The notes under the pieces: generated by a model
What the model was told of the DNA's origin: nothing
Seen by the model: the letters and a program-made list of their open reading frames with translations, nothing else
Database searches by the model: none
Translations under genes and position numbers: made by a program
NCBI GenBank assembly: GCA_017454585.1
Contig: JAFTCU010000072.1
Location: 1-5,180 of the forward strand
DNA: 5,180 nucleotides
Direction of reading: 5' to 3'
Origin: Thermoguttaceae bacterium
Lineage (GTDB): Bacteria; Planctomycetota; Planctomycetia; Pirellulales; Thermoguttaceae
In this document: in pieces, positions 1,687-4,393 of the stretch
How positions within the stretch are numbered: position 1 is the first letter of the stretch
Layout: every line of letters starts with the position of its first letter

Positions 1687-1715
1687 GATTTTAATTATGA
1701 ATAGTATTCTGGAGT

Positions 1716-1750
1716 GCGGCAATACAGAAGCCAAAGGCTTCCTTTGCCGC
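1716..1750 (+). repeat. Palindromic repeat unit A
   Basis: The outer stem GCGGCAA (1716-1722) pairs with TTGCCGC (1744-1750). The inner stem GAAGCC (1727-1732) pairs with GGCTTC (1736-1741) around an AAA loop, and an unpaired TACA precedes the inner stem. The 3' arm can instead pair with the spacer: GCCGCC (1746-1751) matches GGCGGC (1759-1764) around a 7-nt loop, so two folds compete at this end. Confidence 0.75.
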
Positions 1751-1820
1751 CTTCACTTGGCGGCCAAAAAATCTGGCGATAAAAAGCGATTTTCTCGTGG
1801 GGAACGTCCAGCATAATTCA

Positions 1821-1853
1821 GCGGCAAACGCCTCTTCGAGGCGGTATTGCCGC
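1821..1853 (-). repeat. Palindromic repeat unit C
   Basis: The outer stem GCGGCAA (1821-1827) pairs with TTGCCGC (1847-1853), identical to unit A. The inner stem is a different sequence, CGCCTC (1829-1834) with GAGGCG (1838-1843). Read on the minus strand, the unpaired bases TAC fall on the same side as in unit A, which sets its orientation. It lies head-to-tail with unit B, only 8 bp away. Confidence 0.75.
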
Positions 1854-1861
1854 AAGGGAAA

Positions 1862-1895
1862 GCGGTGAATGTCGCTTACGCGACTGTATCACCGC
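1862..1895 (-). repeat. Palindromic repeat unit B
   Basis: The outer stem GCGGTGA (1862-1868) pairs with TCACCGC (1889-1895). Relative to units A and C it carries two compensatory changes that keep the stem intact. The inner stem is GTCGC (1871-1875) with GCGAC (1880-1884). The unpaired TACAG side on the minus strand matches unit A. The unit ends in the terminal inverted repeat of the whole element. Confidence 0.75.
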
Positions 1896-1910
1896 ACTCC
1901 GAAATAATCT

Positions 1911-1948: not shown

Positions 1949-2713
1949 TCAAAGCTGCGAGTACGTCCGGTACAGATGATTCATTCTTTCTTCGTCATGG
2001 ATGTAGGTCCCGTCATGTTTTTGGCCGGTGCAGATCAATTGGCCGCGGCGGAAAACCATGAGCCGGTTTTGCGGGGCTTCTTCCCAGCCAGTGTTTTCGA
2101 GCGGGCGCGTGGAGAACAGGACCGTGCCATTTTCTTCCTTTTTGTGCAGGCTGCCGGGGTGGTTGGTGTGCGCGTAGAAGCAATCGCCGTCGTAGAGCAA
2201 AAGGTTCAGCCGATTGTCGGGGGACACGATGGAGCGAACGACCTCTTCCACGATGCGGATCCGTACCTCCTCGCGGTCCGAATCGGGACGTTTGTTGATC
2301 TCGTCGATGATGTAGAGGAGAACGCTTTCGCTGTCGGTCGCACCTTCCTGAAGATGCCGGTAAGGGGCGATCACTCGCGGGTCGAAAAGAGTCCCGTTAT
2401 GCGCCAAAACCCACAGACGGCCGGCTGCGTCGTGTTTCAAAAACGGATGCGTGTTTTTCAGGCTCACCTCTCCGATCGAGGCCTTGCGGATGTGCGCGAT
2501 ACATTGTGCGGTTTCGATGTTTTGGGTCAACAATTCTTTCAGGAACGAACTGTCGGCGGCCTTTTTCGGCTCCTTCCCGATGCTGATCGGATCCTGATCC
2601 AGCAGGGCGAGGCCCCAGCCGTCCGGATGCTCAACACTGTGGCTGAAAAAGGACTCCAGCAGCTCGTTCATTCTGATTTTTTTGTCGGATGTCAAGCCCA
2701 AAAGCTCACACAT
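1949..2713 (-). CDS. Class II glutamine amidotransferase (YafJ/Dug3/EgtC-like)
   Basis: This is a 254-residue cytoplasmic Ntn-type amidohydrolase domain with no synthase domain attached. The start at 2713 is chosen because it puts Cys at position 2 (MCELLGL), the catalytic N-terminal nucleophile of the family once Met is removed. The reading frame continues upstream, but starting there would bury the cysteine. Other glutaminase-site motifs follow: HPDGWG (29-34), IAHIRKAS with Arg76 (72-79), NTHPF (87-91), AHNGTL with the oxyanion-hole Asn106-Gly107 (104-109) and TDSES with Asp127 (126-130). The pattern is very close to E. coli YafJ as I remember it. Relatives include yeast Dug3, part of a glutathione hydrolase, and EgtC, which removes a gamma-glutamyl group in ergothioneine synthesis. 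The gene overlaps the ligase gene by 8 bp (2706-2713) and has its own ribosome site, AAGGAG at 2724-2729. Hydrolysis of a gamma-glutamyl compound is inferred; the fold and catalytic residues are clear. Confidence 0.92.
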   Translation of the reverse strand: MCELLGLTSDKKIRMNELLESFFSHSVEHPDGWGLALLDQDPISIGKEPKKAADSSFLKELLTQNIETAQCIAHIRKASIGEVSLKNTHPFLKHDAAGRLWVLAHNGTLFDPRVIAPYRHLQEGATDSESVLLYIIDEINKRPDSDREEVRIRIVEEVVRSIVSPDNRLNLLLYDGDCFYAHTNHPGSLHKKEENGTVLFSTRPLENTGWEEAPQNRLMVFRRGQLICTGQKHDGTYIHDEERMNHLYRTYSQL

Positions 2714-4077: not shown

Positions 4078-4113
4078 AAAACAAAAACCCGAGGTTTGCG
4101 GAAAGCTCCCGGG
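4078..4113 (-). terminator. Intrinsic terminator in the ligase leader (attenuator)
   Basis: Read on the minus strand, CCCGGG (4113-4108) pairs with CTCGGG (4093-4088). An inner GAG/CTC and AAA/TTT pairing shortens the loop. TTTTTGTTTT follows at once (4087-4078). The site lies upstream of the ligase ribosome site and downstream of its promoter, so it must act within the leader rather than end an upstream gene. Its 5' arm also belongs to a longer stem that would prevent it from forming. Confidence 0.72.
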
Positions 4114-4204
4114 CTGATGGCGATTTGACGAAAAGTTTTGAAGTCAGTTTATGAGGCGCGTAAACAAACAAACGCTCCACCTCGCCATCGGACATGCCCG
4201 GGAG
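4106..4204 (-). promoter_or_regulatory. Candidate attenuator/riboswitch leader: 17-bp long-range stem competing with the terminator
   Basis: In the leader RNA, CUCCCGGGC (4204-4196) pairs perfectly with GCCCGGGAG (4114-4106), and GAUGGCGA (4189-4182) pairs perfectly with UCGCCAUC (4123-4116), with an internal loop of 6 nt against 1 nt. The enclosed 58 nt (4181-4124) can form smaller stems, including UGAC/GUCA and a GAGCGU arm against ACG...CUC, giving a possible three-way junction. The 3' arm covers the 5' arm of the terminator, so the long stem and the terminator exclude each other. That is the usual logic of a riboswitch or attenuator. I do not recognise T-box, SAM, TPP, cobalamin, glycine or other common aptamer signatures. 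The ligand or sensing mechanism is unknown; cysteine or a gamma-glutamyl thiol is a guess from the gene controlled. Confidence 0.6.
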
Positions 4205-4239
4205 TTTCGTCGCGTTCGCCAACACATCACCATGTTGTT

Positions 4240-4345: not shown

Positions 4346-4366
4346 TTCCTATCAATTTGGTAGGAA
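4346..4366. promoter_or_regulatory. Operator-like dyad over the transcription start
   Basis: TTCCTA (4346-4351) and TAGGAA (4361-4366) flank a 9-nt AT-rich centre. The dyad touches the -10 box and covers the expected start point near 4358, a classic repressor position. The size and layout recall sites of Rrf2-family regulators (IscR, CymR, NsrR), some of which control cysteine and thiol genes. This match is from memory and no regulator gene is in the window. Confidence 0.6.
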
Positions 4367-4393
4367 TTATATCAAGGAATTTTATTTTGTCAA
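4366..4393 (-). promoter_or_regulatory. Strong sigma70 promoter of the ligase-amidotransferase operon
   Basis: On the minus strand a perfect -35 TTGACA (4393-4388) and a perfect -10 TATAAT (4371-4366) are 16 bp apart. TGA directly before the -10 gives an extended -10 (TGnTATAAT). The predicted start is near 4358, leaving a leader of about 324 nt. A promoter this close to consensus usually needs a repressor, in keeping with the dyad over its start. AT-rich tracts upstream could act as an UP element. Confidence 0.85.

What the first reader, a model, noticed from the sequence alone, without database searches (positions are those of the whole stretch)
4078..4204. Unrecognised attenuator or riboswitch-like leader ahead of a glutamate-cysteine ligase gene
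The sequence shows a perfect 9-bp plus 8-bp long-range stem (4204-4182 with 4123-4106). Its 3' arm is also the 5' arm of an intrinsic terminator ending in TTTTTGTTTT, upstream of the ligase ribosome site. Mutually exclusive folds of this kind are the hallmark of cis-acting transcription control. The long stem is completed before the terminator's second arm is transcribed, so the default would be read-through, and a signal that opens the stem would stop transcription. No familiar aptamer signature is visible. By gene context the signal could be cysteine, gamma-glutamylcysteine or redox state; that part is inference.
Basis: partly seen in the sequence, partly recalled or inferred. Interest (0 to 1): 0.75.

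Follow-up and report, generated by a model that had tools for sequence, protein, structure and literature searches.

The report
Cysteine-sensing attenuator borrowed from Clostridia
Ahead of a glutamate-cysteine ligase gene in a rumen planctomycete lies an RNA on/off switch, very probably read by a ribosome that stalls when cysteine runs short, and it matches an apparently uncatalogued family of such switches on cysteine genes of gut Clostridia, from which gene and switch were probably acquired.

Summary
The 9+8 bp stem and overlapping terminator are real and exactly where stated. The element is probably not a riboswitch but a ribosome-mediated (leader-peptide) transcription attenuator. Gut and rumen Clostridia carry homologous leaders (CCTA-N9-TAGG operator, MCCRM.. 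peptide, region 2 TCCCGGGC, region 3 GCCCGGGAG, terminator) before cysK-like, Cys/Met PLP-enzyme, NlpA, LysR and ligase genes. A sequence model of 12 such non-ligase leaders, found through the operator and a Cys-rich ORF, hits the window leader at E 1.3e-6; a 36-leader model gives 1.3e-7, its only hit in the window. In 37 leaders no permutation of 10,000 pairs regions 2 and 3 as well as the leaders' own. The ligase falls among Bacillota sequences and 292 of 296 relatives of the nearest planctomycete genome lack a match, so gene and switch probably came together. No Rfam family matches the leader. Likely action: a ribosome stalled at Cys covers region 1, blocks a protector hairpin, lets 2:3 pair and transcription read through; otherwise it terminates. 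The window keeps one sensing Cys codon (Cys-Trp, not Cys-Cys). Function is inferred; nothing was assayed.

The parts
4366..4393 (-). sigma-70-type promoter, TTGACA - 16 nt - TATAAT
   Evidence: 12 of 12 consensus matches
4348..4364 (-). operator-like palindrome CCTA-N9-TAGG (extended TTCCTA..TAGGAA 4366-4346), just after the -10
   Evidence: exact match to the pattern found within 400 nt upstream of 22 of 80 ligase loci, shuffles mean 0.32; one mismatch in L001
4144..4254 (-). leader ORF, ATG 4254-4252 to TGA 4146-4144, 36 aa, with purine-rich GGAGCAGG at 4271-4264
   Evidence: same frame open in L001 with a 3-nt in-frame insertion
4219..4224 (-). sensor site: Cys codon TGT 4224-4222, then TGG (Trp) 4221-4219 where the clostridial leaders have a second TGY
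4212..4220 (-). region 1 (protector 5' arm, GGCGAACGC)
   Evidence: predicted to pair with 4175-4168 in window and L001; pairing of this stretch downstream of region 2 predicted in many family leaders
4155..4177 (-). protector 3' arms (with 4219-4212 and with 4252-4240)
   Evidence: 20 of 21 bases of 4175-4155 unchanged in L001
4182..4204 (-). region 2: antiterminator 5' arm, 9 + 8 bases
4106..4123 (-). region 3: antiterminator 3' arm and terminator 5' arm
4078..4093 (-). terminator 3' arm CTCGGG (4093-4088) and U-tract (4087-4078)
   Evidence: terminator also found in L001
2706..4034 (-). glutamate-cysteine ligase, GCS2 family
   Evidence: PF04107; TIGR01436 below its cut-off
1949..2713 (-). 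class-II glutamine amidotransferase-like gene overlapping the ligase end
   Evidence: PF13230; same partner after the ligase in L012, L016 and L048, the three checked

Best explanation
A ribosome-mediated transcription attenuator of the amino-acid leader-peptide type, tuned to cysteine, acquired together with the ligase gene from Clostridia. RNA polymerase starts at about 4359 (inferred from the promoter). A ribosome translates the leader ORF. If Cys-tRNA is scarce it stalls at the Cys codon (4224-4222), covers region 1 and so blocks the protector hairpin; region 2 (4204-4182) is left free, pairs with region 3 (4123-4106), the terminator cannot form, and the ligase and amidotransferase genes are transcribed. 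If Cys-tRNA is plentiful the ribosome moves on, the protector re-forms around region 2, the terminator arms pair and transcription stops at 4087-4078. Shown by computation: anatomy, homology to clostridial leaders, maintained 2:3 pairing, target genes of the family. Inferred: translation, stalling, direction of response, cysteine as signal, and that it still works in the planctomycete.
For: Homology: R1 (36 clostridial leaders; window and L001 not included) has one hit in the window at E up to 10: 4241-4184, E 1.3e-7, and hits L001 at 2.1e-6. R2 (12 of the 15 leaders found through the operator and a Cys-rich ORF; the three ligase leaders left out; region 2 not required) hits window and L001 at 1.3e-6 and 1.1e-6. 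In the L001 genome and 19 of its relatives R1 finds only the L001 ligase leader; in 60 other genomes (five with attenuated clostridial ligase loci, L039's, and their relatives) it finds matches in 36; only 58 candidates a genome were scored, so these are lower bounds. Pairing: 37 leaders (35 of 39 clostridial, those with a terminator found, plus window and L001), own regions 2:3 mean -23.8 kcal/mol against -20.4 permuted, 0 of 10,000; slide control. Geometry: last Cys codon to region 2 is 11 nt in 21 of 31 instances, 12-14 in nine, 27 in one probable false positive, about where a stalled ribosome's leading edge falls (recalled). Sensing: the 12 non-ligase leaders stand before 5 Cys/Met PLP enzymes, 4 NlpA lipoproteins and 3 LysR genes; others before similar genes, before cysK-like then ligase (L017), and directly before ligase. 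Transfer: ligase branch among Bacillota rows; 4 of 296 relatives of the L001 genome, itself included, have a match at E 1e-10, the other three at 26-30% identity.
Against: Only one Cys codon at the sensing site (Cys-Trp) and 17 rather than 11 nt to region 2. Between window and L001, 2 of 17 stem pairs break, 2 become G-U and none shows a double change in register. At equilibrium the window is predicted 93% antiterminated but L001 99.7% terminated. The leader ORF's second half changes mostly by non-synonymous substitutions (my reading). GGAG is 13 nt from the ATG. The protector fold has a modest z-score (-2.10 window, -0.80 L001), and in the shorter fragments L001 forms it only at 0.34 and five of 38 leaders at 0.05 or less. 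L008, a clostridial ligase leader with a single Cys, is hit by R1 but not by R2. Switching on a cysteine-consuming ligase when cysteine is scarce is not obvious physiology. R1's sequences were collected with a motif including region 2, so its E-value is somewhat flattered; R2 was built to check this. Many leaders are close relatives, which helps the permutation and shuffle tests.
Confidence: 0.85

Rival explanations
1. A metabolite riboswitch: the conserved 4300-4205 core is an aptamer for cysteine, gamma-glutamylcysteine or a redox ligand, and the stem and terminator are its expression platform.
For: 4300-4205 is 92.6% identical between window and L001 while the 5' hairpin domain is 72.9%; mutually exclusive folds.
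Against: No Rfam match in the leader at E up to 5 or in 15 homologous loci at E up to 0.1. The part shared with Clostridia is the Cys-codon and region 1/2 stretch of an ORF, with Cys codons at nearly fixed spacing; sequence further upstream is poorly conserved across the family.
Confidence: 0.05
2. A decayed attenuator: brought in with the ligase but no longer sensing cysteine, acting now as a constitutive partial terminator or responding to Trp, Arg or general translation.
For: TGT to TGG at the second sensing codon and a longer distance to region 2; opposite predicted equilibria in window and L001; no other copy found in the L001 genome.
Against: Cys codon, region 1, most of regions 2 and 3 and the terminator are kept in both species although fourfold sites of the ligase differ at 37 of 173; leader SD, region 2 and region 3 change in concert in L001 (GGAG/CTCC/GGAG to GGAA/TTCC/GGAA, pairing only in a slipped register).
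Confidence: 0.2
3. The stem is a chance or non-regulatory structure between promoter and gene.
For: Only two planctomycete leaders could be compared and their changes are not compensatory in register.
Confidence: 0.02

Closest known systems
uORFC-8-2 motif upstream of cysS in Rhodobacterales (PMC8632094; passages seen)
   Same: uORF with tandem conserved Cys codons, terminator with U-run, predicted ribosome-mediated attenuation
   Different: other phylum, other gene (cysS), Cys usually at codons 14-15; whether it shares sequence with this family was not tested
Polycysteine leaderless ORFs of mycobacteria (Canestrari 2020; only the citing passages in PMC13236596 seen)
   Same: Cys-codon leader ORFs as cysteine-responsive attenuators of cysteine genes
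   Different: described in the citing paper as translation attenuation
Candidate Cys leader peptides in Actinobacteria (PMC1262725; passages seen)
   Same: runs of Cys codons before cys operons
   Different: no conserved terminator hairpin found there
Leader peptides replacing T-boxes in Firmicutes (PMC2965389; passages seen)
   Same: regular leader-peptide attenuators occur in Firmicutes, and transfer of attenuators between phyla is proposed there for hisS
   Different: the passages seen name no cysteine family
Classical trp/his-type attenuators (recalled)
   Same: protector, antiterminator, terminator, sensing codons just upstream
   Different: amino acid, genes and sequence
CymR/IscR (Rrf2) control of cysteine genes (PMC3828012, PMC9338935; passages seen)
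   Same: operators at promoters of cysteine genes; an Rrf2 gene occurs in all 6 genomes searched
   Different: binding of CCTA-N9-TAGG by any Rrf2 protein is my inference

Membership tests
Ribosome-mediated amino-acid attenuator | leader ORF with start, ribosome site and sensing codon upstream of the switch | tested here: met
   ORF 4254-4144 with Cys codon 4224-4222; ribosome site weak
Ribosome-mediated amino-acid attenuator | mutually exclusive antiterminator and terminator | tested here: met
Ribosome-mediated amino-acid attenuator | targets are genes of the sensed amino acid | tested here: met
   window: ligase; family: Cys/Met PLP enzymes, NlpA, cysK-like
Ribosome-mediated amino-acid attenuator | translation of the leader and codon-dependent stalling change read-through | not testable with these tools
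   needs reporter or in-vitro assay
Clostridial MCC-type leaders (described here) | homologous core sequence | tested here: met
   R1 E 1.3e-7, R2 E 1.3e-6
Clostridial MCC-type leaders (described here) | regions 2 and 3 pair, then terminator | tested here: met
   window -32.8 kcal/mol matched, mean -24.0 with other leaders' region 3, 14% of which are as low
Clostridial MCC-type leaders (described here) | tandem Cys codons at the sensor site | tested here: not met
   Cys-Trp in window and L001; so filed as a divergent homologue, not as a proven functional member. The comparison leaders were picked with tandem TGY
Clostridial MCC-type leaders (described here) | CCTA-N9-TAGG operator at the promoter | tested here: met
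   4364-4348 exact, but after the -10 instead of over the -35; one mismatch in L001
Riboswitch or T-box listed in Rfam | covariance-model match | tested here: not met
   none in the leader
uORFC-8-2 | upstream of cysS, tandem Cys codons | tested here: not met
   ligase, Cys-Trp

The most novel reading that the evidence does not exclude
A portable two-layer cysteine control cassette (Rrf2-type operator plus Cys attenuator) governs an uncatalogued cysteine regulon across gut Clostridia, and one copy crossed the phylum boundary with its gene into rumen Thermoguttaceae, where it still works although its sensor pair has changed from Cys-Cys to Cys-Trp.
Probability: 0.4. Interest if true: 0.75.

Novelty: new member of a known kind. 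Interest (0 to 1): 0.62.

Why it matters
Amino-acid attenuators are textbook, but in Firmicutes cysteine and methionine genes are usually credited to T-boxes, S-boxes and CymR (recalled). A leader-peptide family on cysteine genes, not matched in Rfam, would add a layer to sulfur control in abundant gut bacteria, predicts small ORFs that annotation misses, and gives clear, cheap tests. Its presence before a transferred ligase in a planctomycete would be a traceable case of a translation-coupled RNA switch moving between phyla with its gene, and shows a change of sensor in the new host.

Tried and rejected
Second reading frame in the leader (GTG 4225 to 4076, 49 aa): the frame ends early in L001 (my reading) and no database candidate shares enough words. 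Leader peptide in the protein database: no candidate. Leader DNA in other genomes: among 296 relatives 6 have a match at E 0.01, L001's genome at 2e-104 and five weak ones; among 396 of the order only L001's at E 1e-4. Of the short matches, L083 and L088 were read and look like chance; the others were not found by that script's seeds. Whole-leader DNA similarity to clostridial ligase leaders is weak (best L044, 16 of 500 shuffles as high; L012 62, L048 242, L008 315, L016 317; L057, which has no such leader before its ligase, 32); the relation appeared only through the non-ligase leaders. Viral contigs: no relative, no exact core match. More attenuated ligases: 198 relatives of the L048 genome (32 with the ligase, 34 matches, 30 loci fetched) and 195 of the L008 genome (3 with it) gave none beyond those known. 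P1/P3 conservation between window and L001 alone: 1 change in 40 paired bases if the broken 4244:4163 pair is counted (one search lists 0 of 38 because that pair and a mismatch were left out); too few changes to weigh. T-box: no Rfam match. The Rrf2 identity of the operator rests on position and palindrome only. Three distant planctomycete ligase matches (L092-L094) were meant as outgroup but were not picked up by the tree script.

Literature: ten searches, of which the listings and the passages of six papers were seen, showed no paper on an attenuator of a bacterial glutamate-cysteine ligase or on MCCRM leaders; the library lacks most subscription papers.

Full report
Place. The window's minus strand holds a pheT 3' end (4559), a perfect sigma-70-type promoter (4393-4366), a leader of about 325 nt, a GCS2 ligase (4034-2706), an overlapping class-II amidotransferase-like gene and a permease gene. 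The closest named relative is L001, a Thermoguttaceae (Planctomycetota) bin from goat reticulum with an 86% identical ligase; the pheT and permease regions align at 95% and 92%. That the window is itself a rumen planctomycete is inferred from this. No genome is held for the window.

The reported structure. The 9+8 bp stem and terminator are exactly as described, and fold better than shuffles. What changes the picture is the 36-codon ORF 4254-4144, in which the Cys codon TGT (4224-4222) lies 17 nt before the stem's 5' arm.

First comparison. L001 keeps the promoter, the ORF (with a 3-nt in-frame insertion), both arms in the main and the terminator. Divergence is uneven: 4239-4205 has no substitution in 35 aligned bases apart from that insertion, 4175-4155 one in 21, while the terminator loop has 5 in 15. 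Of 17 stem pairs two break and two become G-U in register. With only two sequences this could neither prove nor refute the stem; protein searches of 296 relatives and 119 family members and a DNA search of 396 order members gave no third leader.

The clostridial family. Ligase loci (79 besides L001, the best 80 of 132) were screened upstream. L012, L016, L044 and L048 have a Cys-rich leader ORF, CTCCCG, CGGGAG and a terminator directly before the ligase, and L008 a similar layout. 22 of 80 loci have an exact CCTA-N9-TAGG within 400 nt (shuffles 0.32 on average, at most 2 in 50; spacers 3-8 and 10-17 give 0 or 1). Searching a form of that operator in six genomes gave 30 listed matches, no more than its reversed control (31), so at genome scale the pattern alone is weak; but 15 of the 29 loci it brought have a Cys-rich, ribosome-site-bearing ORF just downstream, all in the four genomes of L012, L016, L044 and L048. 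Three are the ligase leaders; the other 12 precede 5 Cys/Met PLP enzymes, 4 NlpA lipoproteins and 3 LysR genes. Scanning the 79 loci by motif gave 31 instances in 25 loci, 27 with terminator and 24 with operator; one (L035) is probably false. Model R1 finds 39 stretches in 79 loci, many of them its own sequences; R2 finds 35 in 76 loci, a few of them second copies of its own (such as L053). In L017 the order is leader, cysK-like gene, ligase; in L003 leader, the last third of a cysK-like gene, ligase, which suggests how a cysK leader came to stand before a ligase.

Membership of the window leader. R1, built without window or L001, scores only the leader in the window, E 1.3e-7. Because R1's sequences were collected with a motif that included region 2, R2 was built from the 12 operator-derived non-ligase leaders alone; it scores window and L001 at about 1e-6 and misses L008. 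At genome scale R1 gives L001's genome E 4.7e-4, for the ligase leader alone, and nothing in 19 of its relatives.

Pairing. Each of 37 leaders' region 2 was paired with its own and with every other leader's region 3: mean -23.8 against -20.4 kcal/mol, 0 of 10,000 permutations as low (four of 39 clostridial leaders were dropped because no terminator was found). Individually not every leader prefers its own partner, and several (for instance L031 at 2079, L054 at 1458, L182) do worse than the mean of foreign ones. On the MAFFT alignment A4 of 38 leaders the window's 17 pairs hold in 77.1% of cells; sliding drops this to 23-47%. Helix 1 is mostly invariant G-C with 90% of cells paired; the second helix is paired in 60%, varies, and is absent in some leaders.

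Protector. Before region 3 is made, window and L001 share 43 predicted pairs at probability above 0.2, among them 4252-4240 with 4167-4155 and 4219-4212 with 4175-4168, which enclose region 2. In 38 leaders cut at the Cys start, region 1, the CGAATG stretch after the Cys codons, is paired downstream of region 2 with a mean probability of 0.60 (0.66 window, 0.34 L001, at most 0.05 in five), for instance GTCGAATGC with GCGTTCGAC, and GGCGAACGC with GCGTTTGTT in the window. This offers a reason for the near-invariance of CGAATG. No shuffled control was made for this point, and the predicted partners differ between subgroups.

Mechanism. The 11-nt spacing from the last Cys codon to region 2 (21 of 31) is region 1, which a ribosome stalled at Cys would cover (footprint recalled). 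That gives the classical logic: stall, protector blocked, 2:3 forms, read-through; no stall, protector and terminator. The direction of response and the signal are inferred from anatomy and target genes, not measured.

Origin. The ligase tree (90 rows, midpoint root, no planctomycete outgroup) puts window, L001, P0002 and P0003 together (100/100), next to P0006/P0007 of unknown origin (100/99), within a 27-row group (98/96) in which every other named row is Bacillota, among them L008 and L017. With 292 of 296 relatives of the L001 genome lacking a match at E 1e-10 and three others at only 26-30% identity, transfer of ligase and leader from Clostridia is the simplest account. An Rrf2 gene is present in L001's genome and in the five clostridial genomes searched, in two places (G407 C6, G405 C27) starting next to an operator match, so a transferred operator could be read by a local protein; that is conjecture.

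Known or new. Cysteine attenuators are described in Rhodobacterales, mycobacteria and other Actinobacteria (passages). This family is not matched in Rfam 15 and was not seen in ten searches of an open-access library. I therefore call it a new member of a known kind, found far from its home phylum.

Noticed in passing
window 1702-1910: About 210 nt with inverted ends (GGAGTGCGG..CCGCACTCC) and internal hairpins between amidotransferase and permease genes; L001 has a different inverted-repeat stretch at the same place. Looks like a small mobile or REP-like element.
   Followed up: partly
L003 1535-1879: Last third of a cysK-like gene between the Cys leader and the ligase: a possible intermediate from leader-cysK-ligase to leader-ligase, or an assembly fault.
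   Followed up: partly
L039, -72 to -30 before the ligase match: Different small ORF with Cys-Cys (MLWNGTCCMLYSQ) ending near the ligase ribosome site, without terminator: possibly translational coupling.
   Followed up: no
leader peptides: 19 of 30 MCC leader peptides end with a Cys codon before the stop (..RC*); the window leader does not.
   Followed up: no
window 4343-4319: Small hairpin at the 5' end of the transcript, with one pair changed on both sides in L001 (4341:4321); may protect the 5' end.
   Followed up: no
L001 4303-5446: In L001 two other ORFs, one of them a YbjQ-family gene, lie between pheT and the leader; the window has none there.
   Followed up: no
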